DNA of 60,000 bases, taken from contig NC_134033.1 in assembly GCF_964204645.1 (NCBI RefSeq), positions 5,492,231 through 5,552,230 of the forward strand, given 5' to 3'. The translations under genes were made by a program, and so were the position numbers. The stretch is from Tubulanus polymorphus. Lineage: Eukaryota; Nemertea; Palaeonemertea; Tubulaniformes; Tubulanidae. Of this stretch, positions 2,320 through 60,000 are shown piece by piece (the stretch's first letter is position 1; every line of letters starts with the position of its first letter). Under the pieces are notes generated by a model, which saw only the letters and a list, made by a program, of their open reading frames with translations, made no database searches and was not told where the DNA came from.

Positions 2320-2387
2320 TGTTCTCTGATTCTCTGGCTTCTTCTAAGAAGTTTGGTTCATCTCTTTCTCGGCTCGAGGGACCATTA

Positions 2388-3450: not shown

Positions 3451-3765
3451 GGATGGATAGATATGAATATGTGATTCGTCCTGGAACTGCTCAACTGGAT
3501 TCTATACTTGGTCCGGTCATCCATGGTCATTTTCCTTCGTATTCACATATATACGAGATGTGAAACTATCCCGAAGGCTTGATTTAAGGGAAGAAAGATG
3601 TGAAAGTTATATGAAGATACAGAGAAATAATTCTCAAAATAAATCAATTCTCAAGTTTATAAGCTGCAATTTTCTATCGTGCGATCTTGATTACTGAAGG
3701 AATCGCGAAATTACAGAATAGCCCGCGGGGGAGATGATAAATCGAGATCGATTTTCACTTTCGAG
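3451..3765. other. Spacer upstream of the GPCR gene
   Basis: Unique AT-rich DNA between the short tandem repeat and the receptor ATG. No TATA box, intron signal or repeat that I can defend. It may hold the promoter and 5' UTR of the receptor gene. Confidence 0.4.
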
Positions 3766-6333: not shown

Positions 6334-6830
6334 CTTCACAGACCCACCACACCAGTCGGGAGCGATACAGGGGGTTTGTTTTTAAAATCAGAAATCGAAG
6401 TACAGATATATAGCGCTTGGTAAGCGCTGTCTATGAGTTGTAGTGCATGCAAACGACTGTGAGACATTTGCAGATCATACTGAAAAACTTGTCGGTTGTT
6501 TTGTTAAGTTAGGCATAGGTTTCGATTGAAGAAAACCCATAAATACGAAGAAAGAACAAGAGAGTATTAAACGTTCGAACTAATTCTATCGTTTGAAATT
6601 TCAATCTAGAGTTTTGGAAATGGCTCCTATTGAATTGTGTTTATACTGTGTTTCTTGTGTACAAAATGTCTGGCTTCATAAAATCCTTTGCTTTGGTTAC
6701 ATTGAGCCTATCCCTCCCATTATTTCTCACGCGCTAGACATCTTTTCAAAAGTTGCCATCATTCCTCCTGTAATAATAACTTGCTCATCCTTTATTTGAC
6801 ATAAACACGGTAACTTGTATACCGAAACCA
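6334..6830. other. Intergenic spacer
   Basis: Unique AT-rich DNA. The longest frame (68 codons at 6593) has no recognisable features. Nothing supported. Confidence 0.35.
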
Positions 6831-7470
6831 AGTTTTGATTGGTCTCTATTTGCCGATTCCGGGATTATCCTCTGGCCAGAATACGCTCTACCAATTACGG
6901 AATAATGTGATCCCGGTAGAAGCGGCCGGTAGAGAGTTTGTAATCTGTAAACCTGATAGAAGCGGCCGGTAGAGAGTTTGTAATCTGTAAACCTGATAGA
7001 AGCGGCCGGTAGAGAGTTGGTAATCTGTAAACCTGATAGAAGCGGCCGGAAGATAGTTGGTAATCTGTAAACCTGATAGAAGCGGCCGGTAGAGAGTTCG
7101 TAATCTGTAAACCTGATAGAAGCGGCCGGTAGATAGTTCATAATCTGTAAACCTGATAGGAAGCGGCCGGTAGAGAGTTCGTAATCTGTAAACACGGTAG
7201 GAGCGGCCGGTAGAGAGTTCGTAATCCGTAAACCTGATAGAAGCGGTCGGTAGAGAGTTCGTAATCCGTAAACCTGACAGAAGCGGCCGGTAGAGAGTTC
7301 GTAATCTGTAAACCTGAGAGAAGCGGCCGGTAGAGTTTGTAATCTGTAAACCTGATAGAAGCGGCCGGTAGAGAGTTTTGTAAGTTTCGATTGGTCTCTG
7401 CTCATTCCGGAATTATCTTTTATTGGCGCGTTAGTTTCGACCAGAATGCGCTCTACCTATTCCAGAACAG
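6831..7470 (+). mobile_element. Dispersed element carrying a 40-bp minisatellite (copy 1)
   Basis: The tandem core is flanked by related arms: GATTGGTCTCT followed by a CCGGGATTAT or CCGGAATTAT block and AGAATACGCTCTACC or AGAATGCGCTCTACC. These occur at 6838-6895 on the left and 7389-7460 on the right. The same arm-core-arm sequence recurs inverted at 16695-17150. Recurrence of unique-looking flanks with the array shows that the whole unit moved, not just the repeat. Confidence 0.6.
6912..7381 (+). repeat. 40-bp minisatellite, about 12 copies
   Basis: The unit is GTAATCTGTAAACCTGATAG followed by AAGCGGCCGGTAGAGAGTTT, with starts exactly 40 bp apart over most of the array. A 206-codon minus-strand frame runs through it because the repeat lacks stops in that orientation. 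I treat this as non-coding. Confidence 0.92.
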
Positions 7471-10685: not shown

Positions 10686-11085
10686 TGGACCCAGTTCCAC
10701 ACTTGTGTGGGTTTAATTTGATTCTGAATTAGGTTCGACAGTTTTGTCGATTTAATTTTATTGTGGATCCAGTTCTACAGTTGTGTGGCTTATTCGACCC
10801 AGTTCCACAGTTGTGCGGGTTTAATTTGACTCTGGACCCAGTTCCGCAGTTGTATGGGTTTTATTTGACTCCGAAACAGGTTCCGCTGTGTGGGTCGAAT
10901 TCGACTCTGCATCCAGTTTCACAGTTGGGTAGGTTTGATATGACTCTGAATCCACAGTTGCGGGGGTTTAATTTCAACCAGAATTCAGTTCCGCAGTTGC
11001 GTGGGTTTAATTTCACTCAGAATCCAGTTCCACACTTGTTTGTGTGGGTTAATTTGACTCTGGATCCAGTTTCACAGCGATCTTA
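10686..11085 (+). repeat. 39-bp minisatellite, array 1 of 3
   Basis: The unit is GACTCTGGACCCAGTTCCAC then AGTTGTGTGGGTTTAATTT, 39 bp and about ten diverged copies. The period is a multiple of three, so one frame stays open and reads as a 13-residue repeat (LDPVPQLCGFNLT). The same family occurs at 17970-18290 and 27050-27450, always in this orientation. Confidence 0.88.
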
Positions 11086-28300: not shown

Positions 28301-31300
28301 GATCGAGGCATGGGCTTCCCCAAGGAGAGAGAGAGAGTCGAAATTCTCCGATAGAAATGCCAAATCCAAGAGGGTAGAATATATTTCTATATTACGAATG
28401 CCAGATATAGAAATGCCGGAACAGAATACAGGCAGAGAACAAAATTGTCCATACATCATGAAGTAGCCCACGTAGAACGGAAATTGTTTTGCATTTACCT
28501 CTACCTATGTTATATAGGCATCATATCTGGCATTATTATCTATGTGATTTTAATCTATGGATAGCATTGTTACCGATGACTACCTACTGCATCGTTACCT
28601 ATGGCCACCTATAGCATTGCTACCTATGGCAACCTATGGCATTGTTACCTATGGCTACCGATGGCATTGTTAGCTATGACTAACTATGGCATTTCTACCT
28701 GGCTTCGTATCGCCAATACTTTATACCTCGACGCAGATTTATCACGTGTATGTCGTATGTATAGTATATTGATTAATTCATTCATCAAGTCATGAATTCA
28801 TTTTGTTTGTAAATGGTACACGGATTATAACACGTGGCGGCGGCGGTTCGCGACGAGTCGCGAGAATTAAACGTTGACGATGCACATGTTACTTGTAATA
28901 GTATAATTTATTATAGAGTTATTAATTGCTTATGCAAAAATTCTTCAAATCGTGTTGTCTATGTGGTGAATATACATGTATATCGGGTGTTCAAAAATGA
29001 ACGACGAATTTGAATTGGCATCATTACATCGTGCCTTAGTTAATCCATATTTATCAGTCATCTCTCCCTGGGGAGAAGCAATAGCCGAGCAGTCGCCAGG
29101 CAGCTCATGAGCTATCAATAATACCACGTGCCCATTTACTCCTGGGTGGAGGGAGATGTCTTGCCTGGTGACACTACGGTAATGTACGGGGTTCGAACCC
29201 ACGAACGCTATACCCGCTCACCCACACAGCTTTCTGTTCAGTTTTCAGTTTAGTTTATTTGCTCAACAATAAATGCGATTGCACAGAGCACAAAATGTAT
29301 AAATTCAATACATATTATACAAAATACTCATAATTGATATGATAATAATAATTTCGAGCAAAGGCTGGTAAGCATTTATTCAAAAATATAGATACCGTAA
29401 CTTGATTAAAGTTTTTCTGTTTGAATTTAGTATCAGCTGTAGGGTAACGTCTGTTGGTGTCGCCAATAGTAACTTGGGAGATATTGACTTCTTTGAACTT
29501 GAAAAAAGGAAATGGAAGCTACTAGATGGCTCGTCACAATTCACGAAAAGTATCAGCAGAAAAAATCTTGGGCGTCGTCGTCAACAATTTGCAAATTATG
29601 CGAACATTATCGTATTCGAAACGCCATGTCACAAATGCGATAACAGATTGTATTATTACGAGGGTCGCGTTGAGCCGTTTTGATATCATCGCATTTTTGT
29701 TTTGAATTTTGAAATACCCGCAAGTCTTGTGACGGATTCCTTTGTAGTAATGATAAGTTCATTTACTCACATAGTGCAAGTCTATGAAAACTTCGCGAAA
29801 AATGTTCTACTTTCACCGAGGAAATCATTTTAAATGTTTAGATTTCGAATCTTCCTCTTATTTATGACACACGTATTTTCTTATTTCATTCTTACAAATA
29901 ACCTGGATTTGCGTTTTCTTTTCAATTAGGGTTTTCCAGGAAAATTAGTATAATTGTGTTTGCCCTACGAGTATATTTCTAGACCATTGCAATTAATAAT
30001 CCGTCTCAAGAATGTATAGTCTTCTTTTTCTATTTTCAAGTCGGCGCCCGAGGGCAGCAACAAACAGCAGATATGTTCAGTCGGTAAATTGGAGGAAGGC
30101 AGCAAGGTGAGTCCCACGGTCTTCAAATATAGGGAATCGTCACTCGTATTTATTTGATTGGATCGTCACACCTGCCCGGAGCCAGGCGCAGATCCAGGGG
30201 GTTATGTGGGCCTCGTACAAGACACTCACATGACTATTTTGATATGCCTTTGTCTGAATGAACTCATTACTTTTTACTGCCTCATCGTGTAGAATATTCT
30301 GAAACTTCGTTGGCATAATCTCTAAAGGGTAAGGGAATGTTTACTTCTTGGATTGGAGATGCTGTAAAATGCATCCGTCTACGATTGCGACGCCTAAATT
30401 GCTAATTCGCCTGCAAATATGCCTTCTCCATGATCAAGGATGCCCATAGAAAAAATGTAACAAGACCTTAAAAAAGTAGCTGTTGATCAAGGATAAATTT
30501 GATTAGTGCATCAAGGGCTTTTGAGCTTCCAGGGAAATCTGGAAAAATGGATAATGTTTTTAGCATCCCGAGTGATTCTAGAGCAAAATGACTGGCAAAT
30601 TGATTTGCCACGTGTAATTAATTCTCTTCAGCCATGTTGTGAAAAAACGGGGTTCGGGCAGCTTAGGCACCATTGGATCTGCGCCTCAGTAGGCCTTAGC
30701 TCCGGAAAGGGATTCGATTTTGAAATCTTCCAGACTTTCGCATGATCACAAATAATAACATGTGTCTTAAATCCAGTGAGAGCGCTTTACATTTTTCGGT
30801 ATTATTACACCAGCCATTTCAATACTCTAAGATGTATCAGTCATCTCTCCCTGAGGAGAAGTATCACCGAGCGGCCAACAAACGCTCATGAGTCATCTAT
30901 CAGGCCGGGTACCCATTCTCTCCTGGGTGGAGAGAGGCAATGAGGTTAAGAGTCTTGCCCGAGGACACTATGATAATGTTCGAACCCACGACCTGGCTTC
31001 CCAGAGCCGAATGGTATAACCACCCGGCCACACCGCTCCACATTCCGTTTAGAAACTACTAGAAAATTGGTGTAGAAGTATAGGAATACTGGTCTTCCAC
31101 TCTTTATTCGAAAGAAAATCGACTTATCCCGCGAAGTTTTTTCTTGAAATTACACTGTGCTCCTCTATCGTGTTTTAAAGGATCTAGCCCATCGTTATGA
31201 CTCGCGCTCGGTCACGCTGTCACAAATACACAAAGACAACGCCGGTAAAGCGGAAAACGAGGAGACCGTCAACGGACTGCCGGACGAGACGACGATCGAA

Positions 31301-34300
31301 AAACTCGTAGCCACGGTTAGTTTATTTCTGGTTCGACATTGAAACTTCACCGATTAGGAATTTAGTAAAGTCATTTTTCTGCAATTTTTCTGCAATTTAA
31401 ATCTAGTCGAAGTTGATCATGTCAGAAATTTTTTTAAACAGTTTTCGTCTACTTAATGATAACAATAAATATATCTATTGTTTGTGTTCTCTACCTCATT
31501 AAGCATAGAATATTGTATGTACATATGTATGTATACAAATATACGTAAATGCATGTATGTATGTGCATATGTATGTATATATGTACATGTATGCTCATAT
31601 GTATGTGAATCTTGACCGAATCGTTTTCGAATTTCGAAAGGATGAACTGCTATCTGCGAGAGGAGCGTGGTCATGGGTTATACGCTTACACGACGCGACG
31701 GGCGTTCACTTACGCAACGCGGCCAACTACCACCAGTTCTACATGAACGCCGACCAATACGGCAAATGTTTGAACGCGAAATTGCCGGCGCTGATCCGAA
31801 GTCTCGAGGAAGACAAATTCAACCCGAACGTCGACGACGGAAAACGACTTTTGCAAAAGGGAAAGGTATAGTACTTACTCTTACATAACCCGAGATACTA
31901 TATATTAATTATAAATATTATTATAAATTTATGCCATGCAATCTTCTGGTCACCTTGTATTATGTAATACGTAATGTGTATTGTATAACAGAATAATCCG
32001 TGCGCAATTTTTTTTTGTTGCAAATTAAGGAGCTAGCAATCTTTGAAATTTAGAAAAAAAAGAAAATAGTTATAATATATGATATCTCTGGGCAATTAAT
32101 GGGGAACCTATATTTTTTCCTGGAACCCATATCGAATCCAACAGATGATCGTTGCCAACAGAATGAACGAGTTTCTAAAATCTATGTAACGAGAAGTAAG
32201 CGTTTATTGATAATATATTGCAGGATTTGTTATTCGCACTGAGACTGTATCAGACGAAAATCGTCGAATTGCTGGAATTATCGCATTCTATCGTGCCGGT
32301 TCACAAGCGAACGAACCTCAACAAGGAACCGTTGCCGGTCAGAGCGATGGTCGCTTTCAAAGGCACTAACGTAAGTCTTAGAGCTGTGAGCGTTTTCCGG
32401 CCTCAAATGATTAGATCCTACCGGAAATTTCAACAGCAGCTATCCCGGAAGATGGCGTTAAAAGCACTCGGTTTTACCTTGTCAAAATTAGTTCATAATG
32501 ATCAACTTTGAACTGAATTATCAGGCTCCAAATTCCATACATCATCACCTGACCCATTAAGTATACATTCAACTCATTTTCTACTCAGAAATTCGTATAG
32601 TTTCCATTCATAATTGATTTACTTAAGAGAAAAGTTCATTCGAAATTGAAAGCCGAGGATTGAGAAACTACTAGTTACACCTAGCGGATCCTCGCTTGCC
32701 ATAAGCGAAATCCTCGATCGCCGCAACTTCGCGTGTCAGTTCCCCATTCACGACGCAGTCGTTATCGTCCGATATTTTCTGTTCTAGGTCGAATTCAGAG
32801 AGGGCGAAGATCTGCTTCTACTTGACAACTCGAACCCTGAAATGTGGAAGGTAAGGGACTTCCAGCAACGTCGTTAATACGATTCTGTTTGAAGACGAAA
32901 CCCATTTTTTACGATGATCTTCAGCAAGTACCTGCTAAAATATTCATACCAATTCAGATTTGGACACGAAACCCGTTCGAATCGATAATTGGTCACAAGA
33001 TTCTTATTAACGAGGTTCCACTGTATGAAATAGCCTATTACACGCACTTGAAATTCTAGAACTACTTTAAACTTGAGATGTATTGTGCCGTCCCCCACTT
33101 AGTACACTTGTTTTGTAATAATATCGACACTTTTTGTGAACTTGTCAGTAAAACATGTCTACCCTTCCGTCGTATGTACATACGGTTAATTAACTTTTTG
33201 ACCACGTTCTATGAAATCCATGTCCTATCAAATACTATGTTCTATCAAATGCTTGGTATCTAGTTTTTTATCTTCATTTTTCATTAGGCCTATTCTCAGT
33301 CTATGTTTGTGTAAGAAAGAAAAACCTTGGGTCCGCTTTAATAGACTGGCATTAGCTTCAACCCGGGGCTAACTCAATTCTTAATGAGTAAGTCCCCGGG
33401 TTAAAGAAAATACCAGTCTCTAAAACTGACCCCTGGAAGCTGTGTTGTGTTACGATCTTTATCCTGATGAAGGAGCAGTTTTTCTATATTTTCTTCTGTA
33501 TTTTCCTTTGGATCACAAACATCTTCAGAACTTCGTTGATCCAGCTAGTATCCGTTGTCACGGTCGCTTCGACTAGGAATACTAAAAATCTTTATCATTC
33601 AGGTGAAAACGTCAGATGGAAATAGTGGTCTCGTTCCGGCTCCAGTGGTTTTGATTCCTCCACCGGACACTGAAGCAATCCAAGCAGTATTCAGGTTAGT
33701 TGCAACTTACTCTGTATTCCAGTCGCTTGACACACCACCGACTCAAGGCATTACAAAGAAAAAATATGCGTTTTCTCTGTTTTCTAAATAAAGATATCAC
33801 CAGCAATCCTTAAGAATTACTTTGCAATCCTTATTAGCAGTAATGGCGAGTTTGATATTTGCCTCGAATTTTTGCCCATTAGTTTAACATTTATCTTAGA
33901 TGCAGCTATCATGTACGTGCCGTTTAGTAATAGATAATGTTCATCCTCATTTCAGATCATTAGTCCAGCTTCTAGGTCACTGGTCGCTGGCCGTGAAAAT
34001 CCTTTGTGCCAAATGCATCTTCCCGTACGTCGCAGGCAGTATCAAAGATTGGAAAATCAATCAGGTACGATGTGTGTCGATGGGATGGGTCCTTTCTTTT
34101 CCAACAAAATTAAAGACCCTTAGAGACAGGAATGCTGCAAAAGATTGTTGCCTTCATGAAAACGCACTTTGACATAATCACTGATTATGACTACTTTTCA
34201 CCAACAATTAGTTTGAATATGTCATTATTCAAGTAATGGAATTATGTGCACTACCTTGGCTAGAAGTCTTGGAGTAAAACGATCAATCTTAGTTTCTTTT

Positions 34301-37300
34301 GATCTTGTGTATTCAAGCTCATAAAAATAGCCCTTTGGTAACAAAACTTTGGATTTTATTGGTTCCTTTGATTACATAGTCAACATCCTCAACTTAATTT
34401 CGGACTGGGTACTGGGGTCCAAACCACGGCTCATTTACCTGATTAAGCTGCTACGGACTAATCTTAAAAGCTCGTATCGTTAACAGAAATCTAATTAACG
34501 TGTTTTCGCATTTATTGATTTGATACCAGGACAACATCACTCCTCCCGACCAACATATCTATGAGTTAAAAATTGAACGAGGGTTAAATCATTTGAAGCT
34601 AAACTCTTTTGAGTCGGAGCTTACTCGCAACTCCGGAATGTGTCTTCTAGGGTCAAATCTAATAGGATTACATGTAACCTTTTCAGGAGCGTATTTTGAA
34701 AGCTTTGCCGAATAACTCAAAGACTGAGATTTCTACAGTATTGACCGATAGTTCGGATACTGTCAGTGTATTCCGATGCTCACACCCGCTGTTTGATGAG
34801 TTCGACGAAAATGTGAAATCCGTTAGCAATACGTTGACGGAACGTTCAACAACGAGAGGTAATTAAACCATGGGGCAGTTAGGGAGGATTTAGATGTCAA
34901 GGTCAGAATTGTTCGATTGCCATTCCGAAAATCGTTAAGAGCTAGTTGACCATTCATTGATATGTTGTTTTATACCACCTTCTTTGCCATTGTTCAGAAT
35001 ATAGAACATTTGGTGATGTAACATGGTGACTTACGTGTTACTATTATGCTGTCACAACTAGACCTACGATGTTAGTCTACCTGTGACCTAGGTTGGGAAT
35101 TCACCCTAAGCCGTAAGCTTGATAGTCAGTCTATGAAATCAGGCCCAGGAAAAAACTACTTACCATGAGACGATTGCAGCTGGTGATCTCGGAACGGCTG
35201 ATCAAAACTAAACGTCACTTGACCCAGAGCCCAGGAAGATGTACGCACCTTTCTCACAGGGAATAAGAAGGCAATGTTCTGAAAAGGTAACCTAACTTTC
35301 CATTTACTTTTATTTCGACAGTCGCAGCAAACGACGCAGAAGTTAGCACCCTCAACGAACATGGGATGATTATTAGAGATTTACTGCTGCTATGGCGGGT
35401 AAGTTAAAGAAGATCTAGAGCTTTTTGATGTCTACCATTATCTTCTCATGTTATGACTTGATCGAGCGCACGCTTTGCTTGATTTTCTCGTTTCCTAATC
35501 ATTGAGAATATGTGTGGAATCCACTACTGGTGTGAGACCAGTGACTGGCGGCTTAAACCACTCGACCACTGCGCCTCAATCCAGGGTTTATGGGTTCAAA
35601 CCCTGGTGGCGACAGAGTTTCTTGGTCGAAGGTTCTTCTCTGGTCTCTCCCCAATTGGGAAAAAGAAACATCGAACCTGCTTATAATGCCCTGTGTGGCG
35701 CTTAGCGGGTTGAGGGTGTTAAAAAAAAACTACTGGTGTGAGTAAAATATTGATTCTAAGTACCATTAACCTGAAACATACGACCCTATCACAACACTAG
35801 GATAAGAAACTTGACATGGAAATTTGCGTTTTATATTGACGGGTAAATCATAAACCTAAATCAAAGAACAATTGCTCACTTTGCCTTTCATGTTTATTGG
35901 TCTTATTTGGAACATCCGATTGCATTTCCTAAAAAAATCTAATACTCCCAAAAACAGATTTCTGGTTTCGTGTTTGCGTTCGGGGTTGTTGGTTTTAGGT
36001 TCGTCTTTAGTTCTTTTCATATAGCAATATGTCAATTGGAATTTTCGTTTTGAAAATTATCACCTTATTTTCGAACAAACTAACTAAAGTAGTAGTAGAC
36101 ATTTTATCGGGCTATGTATCCTTTGGCCGCTCCATTTCACCGAAAATGTTTATAAGTTAGTTACCAGGACTGGTTATTAGGTGTCTCTTGATAGTGATGC
36201 ATGCTTTAAGAACAATGGTTTTCTAAATATCAATCCATACTTTGTAGGACGTTGTTGGAGGGTTCGAACGTTACAATCTACTGACACAGCTATCGCGTTG
36301 GCCGGAGTTCATGTTGATGCCGGAAGGTTGGGAAAATTACAGCTGGTCCAGCATGGAAACTATCATAACGTAAGGGAACATTTTCTGTTTACAACAACTA
36401 CATGAAATTGTATGGATGAAATAGTATTATGAAACTTCCTAGAACATGGAAAATAGGACCACTAATATGTTACCAGTTCCATAGTTGTGACCCCTGAATT
36501 AATCAATGGACCAATGAGCTAATTGAATGAAGACGTAGAGTATGAAGACATAGCGTTAACGATGAATTAGCGTTAACGAATCAAAGTAGATTGAAATTTA
36601 CTTTTCTAACCTGACGCAAAGTCATCCCTGTTCCACTGTCGAGGGTTAAATGGAGCTATCTATGCAGATAAGCCTTAACCTTGTCGAAATGTAATCGTCA
36701 GGTTTAAGTAGAAAAAGTCTTAAATAGCCACCCAGGGTCAACCAGTTAAGTAAATGTACGAGACGCCGAACTGCGGGCACCGAAGACAAGTAATATGGTC
36801 TGTGGGTCTTCTCTGAGAAATTTCCAATATTTTGTTTCATTTACAAGCATTTTAGGCACTGCTTTTGATCATCTGATATAAAACCTACGTCGAACTATTA
36901 CTAGAGGCATTTAACTAAGAGGAAGGGGATGAGGCACTAGCACCACAAGCAACCCCTTGATCAGTACCCGATTAAGTATAATGACACAGTATATACAAGT
37001 ATACTGAAAGATTCTACATCATCTGACATTTTCAGTAAATGGCGGGAAGAATTCTTCCGTAATATGAATATGATCGACCAGACGGACAGCAATGACGGAG
37101 CAGACGGCAGTAGTCAGGATATCGTAGAAGAGACGATCACTGAAGTGACAGCTACCGAAAACTACCAGGAACCGGAAACAACGTCGAAAGAGATCGAGGT
37201 ATGTTGAAGTTGTCGAGATGCTCGGTCGTTCGATGCACATATCGGTCTGCAGCCTGCGAACATCCCAGACATTTATCATATTATTGTGAAGCCGATGAAG

Positions 37301-52300: not shown

Positions 52301-55300
52301 TTTCCAAAGTTCAAAGGTCCACGTTTTGGAAAAGGTGACAAATCTGCTGTCCTGGATATTGATGTCGATAAAACTGACGATATTGATGGACAGATCCCCA
52401 AGATTGAATTGGAACAGACCGAAACAAGTGTCGAGTTACCAAAGTTCTCTAGTCCTCATACTACCGAAAAGTTGATGGAAATAGGTGAAACCGAAGCCGC
52501 GCCAGATACAAGTGACGACACAAGTGAGGGCAATTCGGACAAAGGTGGTTTTGGATTTGGTATCAAGTTTCCAAAGTTCAAAGTCCCACGTTTTGGTATA
52601 GGTGACAAATCTGCTGACCTAGATATTGATGTTGACAAATCTGACAATATTGATGGACAGATCCCCAAGATTGAATTGGAACAGACCGAAACAAGTGTCG
52701 AGTTACCAAAGTTCTCTAGTTCCCATACTACCGAAAAGTTGATGGAAATGGGTGAAACCGAAACCGCGCAAGATACAAGTGACGACACAAGTGAGGGCAA
52801 TTCGGACAAAGGTGGTTTTGGATTTGGTATCAAGTTTCCAAAGTTCAAAGGCCCACGTTTTGGTAAAGGTGACAAATCTGCTGACCTAGATACTGATTTC
52901 GACAAAACTGAAGATATTGACTTAGAAGATCAGATCCCCAAGATTGAAATGGAGCAGAACGAAAGAAGTGTTGATTTACCGAAGTTCTCTAGTTCTCGTA
53001 CTACTGAAAAGTTGGTGGAGAAGGACGAGACCGAAACCGCACCAGATACAAGTGACGACATAAATGAAGCCAATTCTAAAAAAGGTGGTTTTGGATTTGG
53101 AATCAAGTTCCCAAAGTTCAAAGGTCCACGTTTTGGTAAAGGTGACAAATCTGATGACCTGGATACTGATGTCGACAAAACTGACGATATTGGTGGACAG
53201 ATCCCCAAGATTGAATTGGAACAGACCGAAACAAGTGTCGAGTTACCAAAGTTCTCTAGTTCCCATACTACCGAAAAGTTGATGGAAATGGGTGAAATCG
53301 AAACCGCGCCAGATACAAGTGACGACACAAGTGAGGGCAATTCGGACACAGGTGGTTTTGGATTCGGTATCAAGTTTCCAAAGTTCAAAGGCCCACGTTT
53401 TGGTGAAGGTGACAAATCTGCTGACCTGGATATTGATGTCGACAAAACTGACGATATTGATGGACAGATCCCCAAGATTGAAATGGAACAGACCGAAACA
53501 AGTGTCGAGTTACCAAAGTTCTCTAGTTCCCATACTACCGAAAAGTTGATGGAAATAGGTGAAACCGAAACCGCGCCAGATACAAGTGATGACACAAGTG
53601 AGGGCAATTCGGACAAAGGTGGTTTTGGATTTGGTATCAAGTTTCCAAAGTTCAAAGGCCCACGTTTTGGTAAAGGTGACAAATCTACTGACCTGGATAT
53701 TGATGTCGACAAAACTGACGATATTGATGGACAGATCCCCAAGATTGAATTGGAACAGACCGAAACAAGTGTCGAGTTACCAAAGTTCTCTAGTTCCCAT
53801 ACTACCGAAAAGTTGATGGAAATGGGTGAGACCGAAACCGCGCCAGATACAAGTGACGACACAAGTGAGGGCAATTCGGACAAAGGTGGTTTTGGATTTG
53901 GTATCAAGTTTCCAAAGTTCAAAGGCCCACGTTTTGGTAAAGGTGACAAATCTGCTGACCTGGATATTGATGTCGACAAAACTGACGATATTGATGGACA
54001 GATCCCCAAGATTGAATTGGAACAGACCGAAACAAGTGTCGAGTTACCAAAGTTCTCTAGTTCCCATACTACCGAAAAGTTGATGGAAATGGGTGAGACC
54101 GAAACCGCGCCAGATACAAGTGACGACACAAGTGAGGGCAAATCGGACAAAAGTGGTTTTGGATTTGGTATCAAGTTTCCAAAGTTCAAAGGCCCACGTT
54201 TTGGTAAAGGTGACAAATCTGCTGACCTGGATATTGATGTCGACAAAACTGACGATATTGATGGACAGATCCCTAAGATTGAATTGGAACAGACCGAAAC
54301 AAGTGTCGAGTTACCAAAGTTCTCTAGTTCCCATACTACCGAAAAGTTGATGGAAATGGGTGAGACCGAAACCGCGCCAGATACAAGTGACGACACAAGT
54401 GAAGGCAAATCGGACAAAAGTGGTTTTGGATTTGGTATCAAGTTTCCAAAGTTCAAAGGCCCACGTTTTGGTAAAGGTGACAAATCTGCTGACCTAGATA
54501 CTGATTTTGACAAAACTGAAGATATTGACACAGAAGAACAGATCCCCAAGATTGAACTGGAGCAGAACGAAACAAGTGTTGATTTACCGAAGTTCTCTAG
54601 TTCTCGTACTACTGAAAAGTTGATGGAGAAGGACGAGACCGAAACCGCGCCAGATACAAGTGACGACATAAATGAAGCCAATTCTAAAATAGGTGGTTTT
54701 GGATTTGGAATCAAGTTCCCAAAGTTCAAAGGTCCACGTTTTGGTAAAGGTGACAAATCTGATGACCTGGATACTGATGTCGACAAAACTGACGATATTG
54801 ATGGACAGATCCCCAAGATTGAATTGGAACAGACCGAAACAAGTGTCGAGTTACCAAAGTTCTCTAGTTCTCATACTACCGAAAAGTTGATGGAAATGGG
54901 TGAAACCGAAACCGCGCCAGATACAAGTGACGACACAAGTGAGAGCAATTCGGACAAAGGTGGTTTTGGATTTGGTATCAAGTTTCCAAAGTTCAAAGGC
55001 CCACGTTTTGGTAAAGGTGACAAATCTGCTGACCTGGATATTGATGTCGACAAAACTGACGATATTGATGGACAGATCCCCAAGATTGAATTGGAACAGA
55101 CCGAAACAAGTGTCGAGTTACCAAAGTTCTCTAGTTCCCATACTACCGAAAAGTTGATGGAAATGGGTGAGACCGAAACCGCGCCAGATACAAGTGACGA
55201 CACAAGTGAGGGCAAATCGGACAAAAGTGGTTTTGGATTTGGTATCAAGTTTCCAAAGTTCAAAGGCCCACGTTTTGGTAAAGGTGACAAATCTGCTGAC

Positions 55301-58300
55301 CTGGATATTGATGTTGACAAAACTGACGATATTGATGGACAGATCCCTAAGATTGAATTGGAACAGACCGAAACAAGTGTCGAGTTACCAAAGTTCTCTA
55401 GTCCTCATACTACCGAAAAGTTGATGGAAATAGGTGAAACCGAAACCGCGCCAGATACAAGTGACGACACAAGTGTGGGCAATTCGGACAAAGGTGGTTT
55501 TGAATTTGGATTCAAGTTTCCAAAGTTCAAAGGCCCACGTTTTGGTAAAGGTGACAAATCTGCTGACCTGGATATTGTTGTCGACAAAACTGACGATATT
55601 GATGGACAGATCCCCAAGATTGAATTGGAACAGACCGAAACAAGTGTCGAGTTACCAAAGTTCTCTAGTTCCCATACTACCGAAAAGTTGAAGGAAATGG
55701 ATGAGACCGAAACCGCGCCAGATACAAGTGACGACACAAGTGAGGGCAAATCGGACAAAAGTGGTTTTGGATTTGGTATCAAGTTTCCAAAGTTCAAAGG
55801 CCCACGTTTTGGTAAAGGTGACAAATCTGCTGACCTGGATATTGATGTCGACAAAACTGACGATATTGATGGACAGATCCCTAAGATTGAATTGGAACAG
55901 ACCGAAACAAGTGTCGAGTTACCAAAGTTCTCTAGTTCCCATACTACCGAAAAGTTGATGGAAATGGGTGAGACCGAAACCGCGCCAGATACAAGTGACG
56001 ACACAAGTGAAGGCAAATCGGACAAAAGTGGTTTTGGATTTGGTATCAAGTTTCCAAAGTTCAAAGGCCCACGTTTTGGTAAAGGTGACAAATCTGCTGA
56101 CCTAGATACTGATTTTGACAAAACTGAAGATATTGACACAGAAGAACAGATCCCCAAGATTGAACTGGAGCAGAACGAAACAAGTGTTGATTTACCGAAG
56201 TTCTCTAGTTCTCGTACTACTGAAAAGTTGATGGAGAAGGACGAGACCGAAACCGCGCCAGATACAAGTGACGACATAAATGAAGCCAATTCTAAAATAG
56301 GTGGTTTTGGATTTGGAATCAAGTTCCCAAAGTTCAAAGGTCCACGTTTTGGTAAAGGTGACAAATCTGATGACCTGGATACTGATGTCGACAAAACTGA
56401 CGATATTGATGGACAGATCCCCAAGATTGAATTGGAACAGACCGAAACAAGTGTCGAGTTACCAAAGTTCTCTAGTTCTCATACTACCGAAAAGTTGATG
56501 GAAATGGGTGAAACCGAAACCGCGCCAGATACAAGTGACGACACAAGTGAGAGCAATTCGGACAAAGGTGGTTTTGGATTTGGTATCAAGTTTCCAAAGT
56601 TCAAAGGCCCACGTTTTGGTAAAGGTGACAAATCTGCTGACCTGGATATTGATGTCGACAAAACTGACGATATTGATGGACAGATCCCCAAGATTGAATT
56701 GGAACAGACCGAAACAAGTGTCGAGTTACCAAAGTTCTCTAGTTCCCATACTACCGAAAAGTTGATGGAAATGGGTGAGACCGAAACCGCGCCAGATACA
56801 AGTGACGACACAAGTGAGGGCAAATCGGACAAAAGTGGTTTTGGATTTGGTATCAAGTTTCCAAAGTTCAAAGGCCCACGTTTTGGTAAAGGTGACAAAT
56901 CTGCTGACCTGGATATTGATGTTGACAAAACTGACGATATTGATGGACAGATCCCTAAGATTGAATTGGAACAGACCGAAACAAGTGTCGAGTTACCAAA
57001 GTTCTCTAGTCCTCATACTACCGAAAAGTTGATGGAAATAGGTGAAACCGAAACCGCGCCAGATACAAGTGACGACACAAGTGTGGGCAATTCGGACAAA
57101 GGTGGTTTTGAATTTGGATTCAAGTTTCCAAAGTTCAAAGGCCCACGTTTTGGTAAAGGTGACAAATCTGCTGACCTGGATATTGTTGTCGACAAAACTG
57201 ACGATATTGATGGACAGATCCCCAAGATTGAATTGGAACAGACCGAAACAAGTGTCGAGTTACCAAAGTTCTCTAGTTCCCATACTACCGAAAAGTTGAA
57301 GGAAATGGATGAGACCGAAACCGCGCCTGATACAAGTGACGACACAAGTGAGGGCAATTTGGACAAAGGTGGTTTTGGATTTGGTATCAAGTTTCCAAAG
57401 TTCAAAGGCCCACGTTTTGGTAAAGGTGACAAATCTACTGACCTGGATATTGATGTCGACAAAACTGACGATATTGATGGACAGATCCCCAAGATTGGAT
57501 TGGAACAGACCGAAACAAGTGTCGAGTTACCAAAGTTCTCTAGTCCTCATACTACCGAAAAGTTGATGGAAATAGGTGAAACCGAAACCGCGCCAGATAC
57601 AAGTGACGACACAAGTGTGGGCAATTCGGACAAAGGTGGTTTTGAATTTGGATTCAAGTTTCCAAAGTTCAAAGGCCCACGTTTTGGTAAAGGTGACAAA
57701 TCTGCTGACCTGGATATTGTTGTCGACAAAACTGACGATATTGATGGACAGATCCCCAAGATTGAATTGGAACAGACCGAAACAAGTGTCGAGTTACCAA
57801 AGTTCTCTAGTTCTCATACTACCGAAAAGTTGATGGAAATGGGTGAAACCGAAACCGCGCCAGATACAAGTGACGACACAAGTGAAGGCAATTCGGACAA
57901 AGGTGGTTTTGGATTTGGTTTCAAGTTTCCAAAGTTCAAAGGTCCACGTTTTGGTAAAGGTGACAAATCTGCTGACCTAGATACTGATATTGACAAAACT
58001 GAAGATATTGACATAGAAGATCAGATCCCCAAGATTGAAATGGAGCAGAATGAAACAAGTGTTGACTTACCGATGTTCTCTAGTTCTCGTACTACTGAAA
58101 AGTTGGTGGAGAAGGACGAGACCGAAACCCCGCCAGATACAATTGACGTCATAGATAAAGCCAATTCTAAAAAAGGTGGTTTTGGATTTGGTATCAAGTT
58201 TCCAAAGTTCAAAGGTCCACGTTTTGGTAAAGGTGACAAATCTGCTGACCTGGATACTGATGTCGACAAACCTGACGATATTGATGTACAGATCCCCAAG

Positions 58301-60000
58301 ATTGAATTGGAACAGACCGAAACAAGTGTCGTGTTACCAAAGTTCTCTAGTTCCCATAGTACCGAAAAGTTGATGGAAATGGGTGAAACCGAAACCGCGC
58401 CAGATACAAGTGACGACACAAGTGAGGTCAATTCGGACAAAGGTGGTTTTAAATTTGGTATCAAGTTTCCAAAGTTCAAAGGTCCACGTTTTGGTAAAGT
58501 TGACAAATCTGCTGACCTAGATACTGATATTGACAAAACTGAAGATATTGACATAGAAGATCAGATCCCCAAGATTGAAATGGAGCAGAACGAAACAAAA
58601 GTTGAGTTACCGAAGTTCTCTAGTTCTCGTACTACTGAAAAGTTGATGGAGAAGGACGAGACCGAAACCGCGCCAGATACAAGTGACGACATGAATAAAG
58701 CCAATTCTAAAAAAGTCGGTTTTGGATTTGGAATCAAGTTCCCAAAGTTCAAAGGCCCACGTTTTGGTAAAGGTGACAAATCTGATGACCTAGATCCTGA
58801 TGAAGTTAAAACTGAAGGTATTGATAAAGATGGAAAGATCTCTGAGATTGAATTTCAGCAGCCGGAAACAAGTGTTGAATTACCCAAGTTCGCTAGTTCT
58901 CATACTACTGACAAGTTGATGGAAATGGATGTGACTGAAACCGCACCAGATACAAATGACGACACAACGGAAGAAGGCAAATATGACAAATCTGAAAAAG
59001 GTGGTTTTGGATTTGGCTTTAAGTTCCCAAAATTCAAAGGTCCACGTTTTGGCCGCGTTAGCAAATCTGGTGACCTAGATACTGATTTGGTTATGACCGA
59101 AAGTACAGAAATCGAAGAAGAAATTCCTAAGATTGAATTGAAACACAGCGAAACAAGTGTTGAATTACCAAAGTTCTCTAGTTCGCGTACTACTGACAGG
59201 CTGATGGACATGGAGAAGACCGAATCCACTTCAGATGTAGGTGATTTAGGTTTTGGTATAAAATTGCCGCGTTTCGGTCTTGGTGATAAAAAGGTTGAAA
59301 TAGCCGATATCGACGGTGAATCGAATAAATCTAATTCGTTCCTGGGGAAAGCTAAAAATGCTTTAACGCATGAACCGAAAAGCATCGTTTATACTCCTGA
59401 GGGGACAAGCGAACCGGAAAGTGAACTATCTGTTCAGAATCCGTTTTACGATGAAATCGCCGTCGATCGCGTGGAAGAGGCAGCGGTACAATCAAAATCG
59501 ATCATCCAAATGGTCAAGCAAAGATTTTCACCCGATTCCAGCGGTAAGTTCGACCAGACTACGACCGTTAAATCTGCGCAATTCGAGGACGCTAGCCCCG
59601 TCAATAAAACTGCCAAAGCTGAAAACTTCCTACAAAAAGTCAAAAATGTTTTCGCCTCCGATTCAGATGAGGTTAATTCCGATGAAGTGGTCGTCGAAAG
59701 GATAACGGCAACTGAGAGCATGGCGCCTCGGAGATTCGACGACAACGTCATAGAATTCATGGCTGCATTCGATTCCTGTGAAGTAGCGCGGGACGAAAGC
59801 GATCGAGGAATTTCGAAAACTATACATTCTTCTGGTAATTGGTCAAACAGAAACGAGCCCGACCCGCTGATATTGGACGATTATCAGTTGAGAATGTCCC
59901 GAGCGGACGACCCGATTATAGTCACTGGTACAGTAACTAATAAGGTTGAAACGTTACCCGATTTCGGAAACGATTTTGATTACAGCGGCGATTTCAACAC
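25261..60000 (+). CDS. Plakin-family giant cytolinker with AHNAK-like repeats (gene model, 3' incomplete)
   Basis: Sixteen exons: 25261-25320, 26445-26510, 26912-27013, 30041-30106, 31181-31315, 31641-31865, 32224-32370, 32788-32850, 33603-33694, 33956-34064, 34687-34858, 35322-35398, 36248-36369, 37036-37198, 37563-37628 and 38351 onwards. All junctions are AG/GT and all phases join; the first 15 total 555 codons. Residues about 99-255 match the spectrin-repeat part of plakins (WSWVIRL...NAANYHQF) and about 255-308 the atypical plakin SH3 (WKVKTSDGNSGLVP, then LIPPPDTEAI). Plakins link cytoskeletal filaments to junctions and cortex. The remaining 7,200-plus residues are one exon of repeats unlike the coiled-coil rod and plakin repeats of vertebrate members. 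No actin-binding CH domains are seen. The plakin domain is firm for exons from 31181 on. The three first exons rest on splice signals and phase only. The stop codon lies beyond the window. Confidence 0.85.
25735..26290 (+). repeat. 47-bp minisatellite, about 12 copies (intronic)
   Basis: The unit is ATTGAGCTTAGACTGGTCTT then AAGTTGTTAGATTGGCTATA and GAACCAA. AGACTGGTCT and AGACCGGTCT variants are self-complementary. It fills most of the intron between the first two modelled exons. Confidence 0.9.
26445..26510 (+). CDS. Plakin gene, exon 2 (putative)
   Basis: A 66-nt phase-0 exon after a pyrimidine-rich acceptor (TTTGTTTTTCTGTTC..ATCAG) and before GTAAGT. It reads VCDRSVTDRPVCNRP then KNRNMER, basic and without recognisable homology. 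Support is from strong splice signals and phase. Confidence 0.5.
26912..27013 (+). CDS. Plakin gene, exon 3 (putative helix)
   Basis: A 102-nt phase-0 exon between CTTTTTTGTTTGTGCAG and GTAAGT. It reads HLADCFHHSFRIHDDQ.. to ..YQSEYLTKIDNI, amphipathic and compatible with a spectrin-repeat helix near the N-terminus of a plakin domain. The other two frames make less sense as protein. Confidence 0.55.
27050..27450 (+). repeat. 39-bp minisatellite, array 3 of 3 (intronic)
   Basis: About ten units of the CCCAGTTCCACAGTTGTGTG family, starting some 35 bp after the donor of exon 3. A plus-strand frame of 143 codons passes through it (DPVPQLRGFNLT-like), but this follows from the 39-bp period. Confidence 0.88.
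27451..28540. other. Intron sequence
   Basis: No exon I can defend. A GC-richer patch at 28180-28330 has open frames on both strands, and a segment ending at a possible GTAAGA (28279) would finish in phase 2, which does not fit the phase-0 exon at 30041. I leave it unassigned. Confidence 0.3.
28540..28705 (+). repeat. Short tandem repeat with CCTATGGCATTGTTA core
   Basis: About seven degenerate copies of CTATGGCATTGTTACC, roughly 20-25 bp apart, within the intron. Confidence 0.7.
29052..29232 (-). mobile_element. tRNA-derived SINE (copy 1, intronic)
   Basis: On the minus strand a tRNA-like head carries A-box-like TGGGTGAGCGGG and B-box GGTTCGAACCC. A body follows with CCACCCAGGAG and AATGGG, ending in CTCCCCAGGGAGAGATGACT. 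Its structure and sequence match the element at 30835-31040. Confidence 0.7.
29240..30040. other. Intron sequence
   Basis: AT-rich. A 93-codon frame at 29402-29683 is open but has no matched splice sites in a usable phase and no recognisable domain. Confidence 0.35.
30041..30106 (+). CDS. Plakin gene, exon 4
   Basis: A 66-nt phase-0 exon (SAPEGSNKQQICSVG then KLEEGSK) between CTATTTTCAAG and GTGAGT. It is charged and could be a linker before the spectrin helices of the next exon. Confidence 0.65.
30835..31040 (-). mobile_element. tRNA-derived SINE (copy 2, intronic)
   Basis: The minus strand begins GGAGCGGTGTGGCCGGGTGG (A-box region) and has GTGGGTTCGAAC (B box). The body has GGGCAAGACTCTTAACC, CCACCCAGGAG and AATGGGTACC, and ends with CTCAGGGAGAGATGACTGAT. 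It shares both ends with copy 1, differing by small indels. Confidence 0.75.
31181..31315 (+). CDS. Plakin gene, exon 5 (spectrin-repeat helix)
   Basis: A 135-nt phase-0 exon (DLAHRYDSRSVTLSQIHKDN.. to ..TTIEKLVAT). Both other frames contain stops. The IEKLVAT end leads into the conserved W..W helix of the next exon, as in plakins. Splice signals are TTTTAAAG and GTTAGT. Confidence 0.78.
31506..31610 (+). repeat. (ATGT)n microsatellite in intron
   Basis: TATGTATGTACAT-type repeats of about 100 bp, ending just 30 bp before the exon 6 acceptor. Confidence 0.85.
31641..31865 (+). CDS. Plakin gene, exon 6 (spectrin repeat)
   Basis: A 225-nt phase-0 exon. Its GAWSWVIRLHDATGVHLRNA followed by ANYHQFYMNADQYGKCLN follows the pattern of the plakin spectrin repeat just before the SH3 domain (W..yL.L....E.H......Y..F..D...). 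This is the clearest spectrin-type match in the gene. The donor is AAG|GTATAG. Confidence 0.9.
32224..32370 (+). CDS. Plakin gene, exon 7 (helix leading into SH3)
   Basis: A 147-nt phase-0 exon after a TTGCAG acceptor. A long helix (LYQTKIVELLELSHSIVPV) is followed by KEPLPVRAMVAFKGTN, the first strand of the plakin SH3, which in plakins is inserted within a spectrin repeat. The donor is GTAAGT. Confidence 0.9.
32788..32850 (+). CDS. Plakin gene, exon 8 (SH3 core)
   Basis: A 63-nt phase-0 exon (VEFREGEDLLLLDNSN then PEMWK) between TTCTGTTCTAG and GTAAGG. It corresponds to the RT-loop end and n-Src region, with the LLDNSN..WK pattern typical of plakin SH3 domains. Confidence 0.9.
33329..33427. 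mobile_element. Palindromic MITE-like element (copy 2, intronic)
   Basis: GGTCCGCTTTAATAGACTGG with CATTAGCTTCAACCCGGGG is mirrored by TCCCCGGGTTAAAGAAAATA and CCAGTCTCTAAAACTGACCC. It is almost a complete hairpin of about 100 bp, and related to the element at 22342-22425. Confidence 0.65.
33603..33694 (+). CDS. Plakin gene, exon 9 (SH3 end)
   Basis: A 92-nt exon starting in phase 0 and ending after two codon bases (TTATCATTCAG / GTTAGT). It reads VKTSDGNSGLVPAPVVLIPP then PDTEAIQAVF. The GLVPxxxVLIPPP pattern is a hallmark of plakin SH3 domains. Confidence 0.92.
33956..34064 (+). CDS. Plakin gene, exon 10 (post-SH3 helix)
   Basis: A 109-nt exon that completes the split Arg codon and reads SLVQLLGHWSLAVKILCAKC.. 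to ..DWKINQ. The W and L pattern matches the resumed spectrin repeat after the SH3, where plakins have a LW.. helix. The donor is CAG|GTACGA. Confidence 0.85.
34687..34858 (+). CDS. Plakin gene, exon 11
   Basis: A 172-nt exon between CCTTTTCAG and GTAATT, phase 0 to phase 1. It reads ERILKALPNNSKTEISTVL.. to ..VKSVSNTLTERSTTR. It is helix-compatible with a Ser/Thr-rich linker. No specific homology recognised. Confidence 0.8.
35322..35398 (+). CDS. Plakin gene, exon 12
   Basis: A 77-nt exon, phase 1 to phase 0, between TTTCGACAG and GTAAGT. It reads AANDAEVSTLNEHGMIIRDL then LLLWR, a helix compatible with a spectrin repeat. Confidence 0.8.
35520..35720. mobile_element. Possible SINE-like repeat (intronic)
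   Basis: On the minus strand GCGCAGTGGTCGAGTGGTTT resembles a tRNA-Leu/Ser A-box region. Next to it, 35581-35606 forms a perfect 9-bp hairpin (CCAGGGTTT..AAACCCTGG) around GGGTTCA. Ends are not defined. Confidence 0.35.
36248..36369 (+). CDS. Plakin gene, exon 13
   Basis: A 122-nt exon, phase 0 to phase 2, between ACTTTGTAG and GTAAGG. It reads DVVGGFERYNLLTQLSRWPE then FMLMPEGWENYSWSSMETII. Rich in Trp and Tyr. The split Thr codon is completed by the next exon. Confidence 0.8.
37036..37198 (+). CDS. Plakin gene, exon 14 (end of plakin domain, acidic linker)
   Basis: A 163-nt exon after GACATTTTCAG, ending GAG|GTATGT in phase 0. KWREEFFRNMN ends the structured part. It is followed by an acidic, disordered stretch (DQTDSNDGADGSSQDIVEET). 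Confidence 0.82.
37308..37440 (+). repeat. 109-bp repeat remnant (intronic)
   Basis: AAAAGTCTAATGTCCGGTCT and GTAGTTCATTATCAATTAAA match the array at 23620-24062, with a second degenerate half copy (GAATGTCTAATG) following. Confidence 0.65.
37563..37628 (+). CDS. Plakin gene, exon 15
   Basis: A 66-nt phase-0 exon (ATETKEEADAEAVMKA then SHEQKQ) between GGTTATCTCAG and GTAACA. Both other frames have stops. Acidic, helical linker. Confidence 0.8.
38351..60000 (+). CDS. Plakin gene, giant repeat exon 16 (continues past the window)
   Basis: The frame is open from the TTTTCTTTTTCATCTAG acceptor to the last base, 21,650 nt or over 7,200 codons, in the phase left by exon 15. Order: basic Ser/Pro linker (about 38400-38600, KKKSPLPQRKKK), acidic unique region, a Tyr-rich island (38970-39310), helix-motif modules (39720-44400), WLDDEKKFID modules (44490-46800), the 89-residue array (46800-59220), and a unique C-terminus. 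Composition is rich in Lys, Asp, Glu, Ser, Thr and Pro, with Phe-spaced strands. Most is probably disordered or short beta segments. Cys is rare. A single giant coding exon with strand-like KxPKFK repeats recalls AHNAK and periaxin, but I cannot claim homology. Near-identity at the DNA level shows recent array growth. No stop is reached. Confidence 0.93.
39720..44400 (+). repeat. Helix-motif modules in the giant exon (about 13 copies)
   Basis: A basic helix-like motif of the form KS(I/F)VQ(Q/K)IK(D/E)KLTPNQKD recurs about 13 times (for example near 39729, 40450, 40810, 41080, 41610, 42130, 43050 and 43860). It is followed by an acidic VENEDSEK segment, an IPKVELVKTES strand and, in some modules, KGGFGFDLKLPKFNAPKFGR. 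The last part is the probable ancestor of the 89-residue units. Module lengths vary from about 80 to 180 residues. Confidence 0.85.
44492..46795 (+). repeat. PYWLDDEKKFID modules in the giant exon (8 copies)
   Basis: Copies of LPYWLDDEKKFIDSI or close variants start at about 44492, 44735, 44978, 45221, 45818, 46082, 46520 and 46769. The first four are spaced exactly 243 bp (81 codons) apart. Each is followed in most cases by PVEIVEEIGKS and a Ser/Pro linker. This is the only Trp-containing repeated motif in the exon. Confidence 0.88.
46800..59225 (+). repeat. 89-residue (267-bp) coding tandem array, about 46 units
   Basis: Each unit reads, in order, GGFGFGIKFPKFKGPRFGKG, DKSADLDIDVDKTDD, IDGQIPKIELEQTETS, VELPKFSSSHTTEKLM and EMGETETAPDTSDDTSEGNS. 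Most units are exactly 267 bp. A second type, six bases longer, has DLEDQIPKIEMEQNETSVD and SRTTEKLVEKDE with DDINEANSKK. Units in the middle are nearly identical at DNA level, and those at both ends are more diverged. The open minus-strand frames of up to 628 codons here are shadows of this array. Confidence 0.95.
59226..60000 (+). other. Unique C-terminal region of the giant exon
   Basis: After a degenerate last unit (LGFGIKLPRFGLGDKK) the frame becomes non-repetitive. The helix motif of the upstream modules appears again as KSIIQMVKQRFSPDS (about 59497) and NFLQKVKNVFASDSDE (about 59621). The end of the window (DPLILDDYQLRMSRADDP onwards) is acidic and still open. Confidence 0.8.

What the first reader, a model, noticed from the sequence alone, without database searches (positions are those of the whole stretch)
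31181..60000. Plakin domain joined to a giant-exon, AHNAK/periaxin-like repeat protein
Seen: exons at 31641-33694 encode a plakin spectrin repeat and the atypical plakin SH3 (WKVKTSDGNSGLVP..LIPPP), and phase-compatible exons lead into a single exon open for over 21.6 kb made of Lys/Phe/Pro strand repeats. Known: plakins (plectin, desmoplakin, periplakin, spectraplakins) normally continue with coiled-coil rods, plakin repeats or spectrin rods; AHNAK and periaxin carry giant-exon strand repeats but with PDZ domains, not plakin domains. Inference: this is an undescribed cytolinker architecture, with a repeat arm replacing the rod.
Basis: partly seen in the sequence, partly recalled or inferred. 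Interest (0 to 1): 0.9.

Follow-up and report, generated by a model that had tools for sequence, protein, structure and literature searches.

The report
Giant plakin with a repeat arm
This animal gene appears to encode a roughly 930-kilodalton cell-skeleton linker of the plakin family whose usual rod has been replaced by a huge, probably floppy, repeat-filled arm, a build for which no description turned up in the papers searched.

Summary
Eleven GT-AG exons (31181-37628) encode a plakin piece with the atypical SH3 (SH3_10 1.7e-15; plectin 3pe0 4.5e-14) and join in frame to one exon starting at 38351. Fetching the contig past the window shows this exon running to 61516 (7,722 codons), followed by in-frame exons encoding plakin repeats (PF00681 6.8e-19) and a stop at 67201. 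The gene is plakin head, giant repeat exon, plakin-repeat tail: 8,443 residues, 5' end missing, about 930 kDa.

The giant exon lies where most mammalian plakins carry a coiled-coil rod, but has no proline-free stretch longer than 64 residues. Its array of 46 units of about 89 residues is under purifying selection (pN/pS 0.32); no match elsewhere in the genome was reported. The ordinary spectraplakin is a separate gene on another contig. A third, compact plakin (SH3, then plakin repeats, no giant exon) lies on the same contig, supporting head and tail as one gene.

Kinship to AHNAK/periaxin is neither shown nor excluded: the likeness is at short-motif level, but so is that between AHNAK and periaxin in my test, and the 5' exons, where a PDZ would sit, were not found. 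Transcripts and other species could not be examined.

The parts
31181..31315 (+). Exon 1 of the model (earlier exons not found); spectrin-repeat part
   Evidence: GT-AG, phase 0/0; inside the desmoplakin 3r6n alignment, which starts at query residue 3
31641..31865 (+). Exon 2, spectrin-repeat part (WSWVIRLHDATGVHLRNAANYHQFYM)
   Evidence: Aligned to plectin 3pe0 and desmoplakin 3r6n
32224..32370 (+). Exon 3, end of the spectrin repeat and start of SH3
32788..32850 (+). Exon 4, SH3 core
   Evidence: SH3_10 over residues 145-209 of the spliced protein
33603..33694 (+). Exon 5, end of SH3 (VKTSDGNSGLVPAPVVLIPPP)
33956..34064 (+). Exon 6, after the SH3
   Evidence: Splice borders and phases only
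34687..34858 (+). Exon 7
   Evidence: Splice borders and phases only
35322..35398 (+). Exon 8
   Evidence: Splice borders and phases only
36248..36369 (+). Exon 9
   Evidence: Splice borders and phases only
37036..37198 (+). Exon 10, acidic linker
   Evidence: Splice borders and phases only
37563..37628 (+). Exon 11, acidic linker, phase 0 into the giant exon
   Evidence: Splice borders and phases only
38351..60000 (+). Giant exon 12, continuing past the window to 61516 (window numbering): 7722 codons. Tail exons follow at 61722-61775, 62661-62874, 63356-63488, 66080-66239 and 66968-67201
   Evidence: tail is PF00681, 6.8e-19
38930..39370 (+). Non-repeat N-terminal stretch of the giant exon, with two look-alike aromatic stretches (AYVYKYDDTLQYDHASGRVW / CYVLHKYKYFTDTATGLSR)
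   Evidence: Seen in the translation; single-sequence fold too weak to use, mean pLDDT 45.1
39725..44347 (+). Older, diverged repeats carrying a motif like SKS[FI][VI]QQ[IM]K[ED]KLTPNQ (13 of the 14 copies matched in the exon)
44389..45346 (+). Second repeat type, 243-bp unit (LPYWLDDEKKFIDSIL), 3.9 copies
   Evidence: TRF
46789..59224 (+). Main array: 46 unit anchors, spaced mostly 89 (35) or 91 (9) residues (GGFGFGIKFPKFKGPRFGKGDK...IPKIELEQTETSVELPKF)

Best explanation
It is a plakin gene, separate from the spectraplakin gene, with a plakin head (spectrin repeats around an SH3_10), a 7,722-residue repeat arm in one exon, and a C-terminal plakin-repeat tail; a possible alternative last exon would give a form without the tail. 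Shown from sequence: the exons, the domains, their order and strand, and selection on the array. Inferred mechanism: the head docks at a cell-junction or membrane plaque and the plakin-repeat tail binds filaments, as in desmoplakin. The arm between them is a very long, mostly disordered, charge-rich tether instead of a dimerising coiled coil. It would give an extensible, monomeric link, with dozens of near-identical sites, that spreads load or binds many partners at once. The tail-less form would be attached by its head only.
For: Plakin head. Giant exon. Plakin-repeat tail, PF00681 6.8e-19 with 4 stretches. 17 exons, 16 of 16 introns GT-AG with compatible frames, 8,443 residues, ~930 kDa; alternative last exon 61890-61955. 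Compact paralogue with SH3_10 (6e-12) and Plectin (3.3e-8) in the same order, stop right after the repeats. Spectraplakin is another gene (CH, Spectrin_4, SH3_10 6.9e-25, giant plakin-repeat frames) on contig C2. No long coiled coil: longest proline-free stretch 64 of 7,722 residues. Array under purifying selection. All 48 reported genome matches to the unit lie in this exon. Roles of head, coiled coil and plakin repeats in known plakins: passages of PMC5979291 and PMC4782060.
Against: No transcript evidence; exon borders were chosen by eye, so their fit is not an independent test, and exons 6-11 rest on splice borders and phases alone. The 5' exons, and so the true N-terminus, are unknown. 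Disorder is inferred from composition; the single-sequence model of three units is merely low-confidence (mean pLDDT 45.5). No coiled-coil predictor was run; a crude heptad count still gives a few 42-residue windows near the end of the exon with 67% hydrophobic a/d positions. The tail has few plakin repeats, weakly matched to solved ones (best 0.0036), and the literature warns that protostome plakin repeats may bind other partners (PMC9145010), so filament binding is uncertain. Whether the animal has suitable intermediate filaments could not be searched.
Confidence: 0.62

Rival explanations
1. Two or three neighbouring genes: a small plakin (head plus plakin-repeat tail) whose intron hosts an independent giant-exon gene, or a head gene followed by a separate giant gene.
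For: No cDNA seen. The compact paralogue shows that head and tail can work without a giant exon. Exon 11 could splice straight to the tail exons at 61722 or 62661, since these joins are phase 0.
Against: The giant exon has an acceptor exactly at its opening (ctag|CGC), a donor after 61516, and in-frame exons on both sides, all on one strand. An exon ending in a donor rather than a stop fits an internal exon.
Confidence: 0.15
2. It is simply an isoform region of the animal's spectraplakin, like the giant plakin-repeat exons of shot, VAB-10 or MACF1b.
For: The position after the plakin domain matches where spectraplakins carry extra plakin repeats (MACF1b in PMC5979291; giant exons of shot and VAB-10 recalled).
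Against: The canonical spectraplakin is on contig C2 with CH, spectrin-type repeats and giant plakin-repeat frames. Here no CH or spectrin match at 5-31.2 kb upstream (0 families in 6 of 6 frame stretches) and no GAS2, EF-hand or spectrin match at 62-79 kb; the same method found CH and Spectrin_4 in C2. Caveat: Pfam also misses this gene's own spectrin repeats, so diverged ones upstream could be missed.
Confidence: 0.05
3. The arm is a true AHNAK/periaxin-family repeat captured by a plakin, a fusion of two kinds of junction protein (compatible with the best explanation for the rest of the gene).
For: The doubled unit scores 96 against a recalled AHNAK repeat; 0 of 300 residue shuffles reach that, z 7.6, and the reversed unit scores 35. 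The same test on AHNAK against periaxin, also recalled, gives z 6.2 and 8.0, so our unit is about as close to AHNAK as periaxin is. Older repeats against AHNAK: 4 of 200 shuffles reach the score.
Against: With blocks of 2, 4 and 8 residues shuffled, 1, 25 and 41 of 300 shuffles reach the score, so the likeness is of short motifs; but AHNAK against periaxin behaves the same (0, 19 and 152 of 300), so this does not reject kinship. Against periaxin, 6 of 300 (unit) and 153 of 200 (older repeats) shuffles reach the score. No PDZ found. The AHNAK and periaxin letters were recalled, not fetched.
Confidence: 0.2
4. An assembly or mutational artefact: a repeat expansion in a decaying gene.
For: Some units are identical at DNA level, so the array is still turning over by duplication, and its copy number in the assembly is uncertain.
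Against: No stop in 7,733 codons, pN/pS 0.32 in the open frame, and recognisable domains on both sides.
Confidence: 0.04

Closest known systems
Desmoplakin / envoplakin (plakins without actin-binding domain)
   Same: Plakin domain with SH3, then a long middle, then plakin repeats; no CH or GAS2 found in the stretches searched
   Different: Middle is a 7.7k-residue repeat arm in one exon with no long coiled coil; tail has few, diverged plakin repeats; 5' end of the head unknown
Spectraplakins (MACF1, dystonin, Shot, VAB-10)
   Same: Plakin domain and plakin repeats; spectraplakins also have long plakin-repeat exons after the plakin domain (recalled; seen here in C2)
   Different: No ABD, spectrin rod or GAS2 found here; the true spectraplakin is a different gene (contig C2)
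AHNAK / AHNAK2 / periaxin
   Same: Long tandem repeats with K/P/hydrophobic motifs, charge-rich, probably disordered (single large exon recalled; disorder and junction partners of periaxin from passages of PMC7072810)
   Different: No PDZ found; plakin head and tail instead; common descent of the repeats undecided

Membership tests
Plakin family | Plakin domain: spectrin repeats with inserted SH3_10 | tested here: met
   SH3_10 1.7e-15; plectin 4.5e-14 and desmoplakin 1.5e-11 over spectrin repeat plus SH3. Number of spectrin repeats unresolved (5' exons missing; Pfam recognises none of them)
Plakin family | Plakin (plectin) repeats | tested here: met
   PF00681 6.8e-19, 4 stretches, in the exons at 61722-67201 beyond the window
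Coiled-coil plakins (desmoplakin, plectin, envoplakin, periplakin, BPAG1e) | Coiled-coil rod between plakin domain and plakin repeats | tested here: not met
   Longest proline-free stretch 64 of 7,722 residues; no coiled-coil family passes in the exon up to the window end. No dedicated coiled-coil predictor was run
Spectraplakin | Actin-binding CH domains | tested here: inconclusive
   None at 5-31.2 kb upstream by Pfam (positive control). A further 50 kb upstream tested only by tblastn with spectraplakin peptides, no convincing match in the rows seen. But the 5' exons were not found
Spectraplakin | Spectrin rod, EF hands and GAS2 after the plakin part | tested here: not met
   None at 62-79 kb on the + strand; the model stops at 67201
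AHNAK/periaxin family | N-terminal PDZ domain | tested here: inconclusive
   No PDZ, but the 5' exons were not found
AHNAK/periaxin family | Homologous strand repeats | tested here: inconclusive
   Residue shuffle z 7.6, blocks of 4 and 8 z 1.6 and 1.0; the AHNAK-periaxin control gives z 8.0, 1.6 and 0.1; comparison letters recalled

The most novel reading that the evidence does not exclude
Some non-vertebrate animals have plakins beyond the single spectraplakin, and in one of them the dimerising rod was exchanged for an approximately 7,700-residue, single-exon, disordered polyampholyte with dozens of near-identical sites: a monomeric, extensible cytolinker of nearly 1 MDa that combines in one chain what vertebrates split between desmoplakin-type plakins and AHNAK/periaxin-type scaffolds.
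Probability: 0.5. Interest if true: 0.75.

Novelty: new variant of a known kind. Interest (0 to 1): 0.6.

Why it matters
One review counts only two invertebrate plakins, shot and VAB-10, and places the coiled-coil rod as the usual bridge between plakin domain and plakin repeats (PMC5979291, passages). A second and a third plakin gene beside the spectraplakin in one animal, one compact and one with an exchanged middle, would show that plakins other than spectraplakins are not confined to vertebrates (the animal's non-vertebrate nature is my inference) and that the bridge can be rebuilt as a disordered arm. It would allow a direct test of what the rod is for: dimerisation and stiffness, or merely reach.

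Tried and rejected
Spectraplakin isoform: rejected, since the spectraplakin is at C2:23.11-23.17 Mb. DbpA and TEP1_CUB2 Pfam hits on the array: whole-protein scores with 0 matched stretches passing, repeat effects. Ab initio exon scoring to find 5' exons: codon bias too weak, several known exons score near zero. Search for further spectrin repeats or CH upstream with spectraplakin peptides: nothing convincing in order and strand. The best rows were 7.8e-4 on the reverse strand in a Leu-rich stretch and 0.015 inside the GPCR region. The list was cut at 6000 characters, so four of the peptides (SRg to SR4) were seen only for the forward strand of the window. Protein database searches: none at E 0.01 for the head (7831 candidates, only proteins of about 251-800 residues could be candidates, so full-length plakins were out) or for the first 500 residues of the giant exon (3055 candidates). 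Absence there says little. Two single-sequence structure predictions: mean pLDDT 45, not interpretable, so no fold search was made. Genome searches for families PF00681, PF17902, PF00307, PF02187 and PF00038 did not complete, so the full number of plakin genes and the presence of intermediate filaments are open.

Full report
What was checked. The window is G000:C9:5492231-5552230 of a 267.8-Mb assembly in 77 contigs. The frame from 38351 is open to the window end. After fetching the next 49 kb (1,000-base overlap identical), the frame ends at a stop at 61550, with a donor (GAGACG|gtaaga) after 61516. Upstream, eleven exons between 31181 and 37628 have GT-AG borders and compatible phases and enter 38351 at phase 0. 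I chose the borders by eye, so their fit is supportive but not an independent test.

Is it plakin? The 457-residue product matches plectin 3pe0 at 4.5e-14 (residues 51-223) and desmoplakin 3r6n at 1.5e-11 (residues 3-217). The next hit, an ordinary SH3, is at 0.0054. Pfam gives SH3_10 at 1.7e-15 and recognises no spectrin repeat. Exons 6-11 have no domain match and rest on splice borders and phases.

What follows the giant exon. Beyond the window, exons at 61722-61775, 62661-62874, 63356-63488, 66080-66239 and 66968-67201 (window numbering; ends in TAG) continue the same frame. Their product holds plakin repeats: PF00681, 6.8e-19, 4 stretches. Matches to solved plakin-repeat structures are weak (desmoplakin 0.0036 and 0.0046, plectin 0.048). 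A possible alternative last exon, 61890-61955, adds KKSVKQTSGKVFQRLSKGCEK and stops. The model with the repeats has 17 exons, 16 of 16 introns GT-AG, 8,443 residues and about 930 kDa; the other form has 8,218 residues. Exon 1 has no in-frame ATG, so the 5' end is missing.

Relatives in the same genome. A search with 176 residues of the head found three plakin loci. The spectraplakin is a separate gene on contig C2 (about 23.11-23.17 Mb): CH and Spectrin_4, SH3_10 at 6.9e-25 and Spectrin_3, followed by open frames of 12,960 bp and at least 12,912 bp rich in plakin repeats. A third plakin lies at C9:15.378 Mb: SH3_10 at 6e-12 and Plectin at 3.3e-8 on pieces joined by eye. There the plakin-repeat exon starts 1,490 bp after the SH3 exon ends, with one small exon-like piece between, and stops right after the repeats. 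Its repeat exon is 48% identical to ours over 54 columns, and its SH3 38% over 82. This compact gene shows that head and tail belong together without a giant exon, and makes 'a giant exon put into a compact plakin' the simplest history (inference).

The arm. It has 7,722 residues, D 11.5%, K 10.9%, E 10.6%, S 9.2%, T 8.7%, P 6.7%. Its longest proline-free stretch is 64 residues, so it holds no long coiled coil; a crude heptad count finds a few 42-residue windows near the exon's end with 67% hydrophobic a/d positions. It has a non-repeat start, older repeats with a motif like SKS[FI][VI]QQ[IM]K[ED]KLTPNQ (14 copies matched by pattern, 13 of them in residues 459-1989), a 243-bp repeat, and the main 267-bp array. 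Of 48 pattern anchors, 46 lie in the main array. Of 47 intervals, 35 are exactly 89 residues, 9 are 91, and 3 are others (95, 175, 1524). Only the 35 were used for substitution counts. Pooled pN/pS is 0.32 in the open frame, against 1.06 and 1.67 in the other forward frames and 1.44, 0.57 and 0.95 in the reverse frames. Median DNA identity between units is 0.959 and some pairs are identical. All 48 reported matches to the unit lie in this exon (62 candidates scored, and the tool calls its counts lower bounds).

AHNAK or periaxin? Against a recalled, unfetched AHNAK repeat, 0 of 300 residue shuffles reach the doubled unit's score (z 7.6). When blocks of 2, 4 and 8 residues are shuffled, 1, 25 and 41 of 300 shuffles reach it. 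That looked like convergence of short motifs. But the pair AHNAK and periaxin, both recalled, gives 0, 19 and 152 of 300 in the same test, although periaxin is reported to share a homologous region with AHNAK2 (PMC7072810, passages). So the test cannot tell kin from motif likeness, and the question is open. Against recalled periaxin, 6 of 300 (unit) and 153 of 200 (older repeats) shuffles reach the score; older repeats against AHNAK, 4 of 200. No PDZ was found in the stretches scanned. 'AHNAK-like' is a description here; descent is undecided.

What was not found. Upstream 5-31.2 kb gave 0 Pfam families in 6 of 6 frame stretches. The same method on the spectraplakin found CH and Spectrin_4, but it would miss spectrin repeats as diverged as this gene's own. 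A further 50 kb upstream was searched only with spectraplakin peptides, without a convincing match in the rows seen. At 62-79 kb only weak Plectin hits of this gene's own exons appear, no GAS2, EF hand or spectrin. Giant-exon sequence between the window end and 61516 was not scanned with Pfam.

Mechanism. From passages of a review (PMC5979291): the plakin domain interacts with hemidesmosome and desmosome proteins, the coiled-coil rod lies generally between plakin domain and plakin repeats and mediates dimerisation, and plakin repeats are a hallmark of the family. From passages of PMC4782060: a plakin-repeat module binds intermediate filaments through a basic groove. By analogy, I propose a junction-to-filament tether whose bridge is a long disordered polyampholyte. 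The sequence shows head, arm and tail; docking, filament binding, disorder and monomeric state are inferred. PMC9145010 (outline and the first part of section 2.3 read) reports plakin repeats in protostome spectraplakins and suggests they may have other partners, so filament binding by this tail is uncertain. It also mentions a truncated spectraplakin in a sea anemone, but in the part read no plakin with such an arm.

Novelty. Nine searches of the held library showed no title or abstract start describing a plakin with such an arm or a second invertebrate plakin. Papers listed of papers found, in that order: 6 of 7, 20 of 28, 15 of 28, 0 of 0, 0 of 0, 15 of 653, 10 of 37, 1 of 1, 1 of 1; for the listed papers I saw title and abstract start, and for PMC9145010, PMC5979291, PMC4782060 and PMC7072810 the parts named above. 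One review counts two invertebrate plakins, shot and VAB-10. The library is open-access only, and automated annotations in sequence databases were out of reach. Verdict: most likely a real gene, a plakin by both hallmark domains, and a new variant of a known kind.

Noticed in passing
window 3691-4881 (+): Single-exon rhodopsin-type GPCR gene (7tm_1, 1.3e-12); two more receptor-like single frames, similar to each other, lie downstream at 81816-83024 and 87606-88745 in window numbering (not tested against Pfam).
   Followed up: partly
window 576-2343 (-): Retroelement-like frames, including a zinc-knuckle-like stretch, in pieces; judged by eye, not pursued.
   Followed up: no
window 35556-35729 (-) and downstream 86481-86735 (+): A dispersed element inside an intron of the plakin gene: two places with near-identical translated stretches (NTLNPLSATQGII), probably a SINE-like repeat.
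   Followed up: no
window 6785-7456, 10733-11083, 25740-26200, 27055-27580: Minisatellite-like tracts, some open in more than one frame, which mimic genes in ORF lists.
   Followed up: no
G000 contig C2 23142742-23155701 and 23156087-23168998 (L022-L024): The spectraplakin is followed by two giant plakin-repeat-rich frames of about 12.9 kb each, the second still open at the end of the fetched stretch; whether both belong to one transcript is untested.
   Followed up: partly
window 38930-39370: The non-repeat start of the giant exon has two look-alike aromatic stretches; no Pfam relative and no meaningful PDB relative (best 0.91), so possibly a new small domain.
   Followed up: partly
G000 C9 5442231-5492230 (L025-L029): Upstream neighbourhood holds at least three reverse-strand frames sharing a stretch like SEGVGQGGVGGINLGSSTQQ, with long glycine-rich repeats after it: a local family of repeat proteins.
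   Followed up: no
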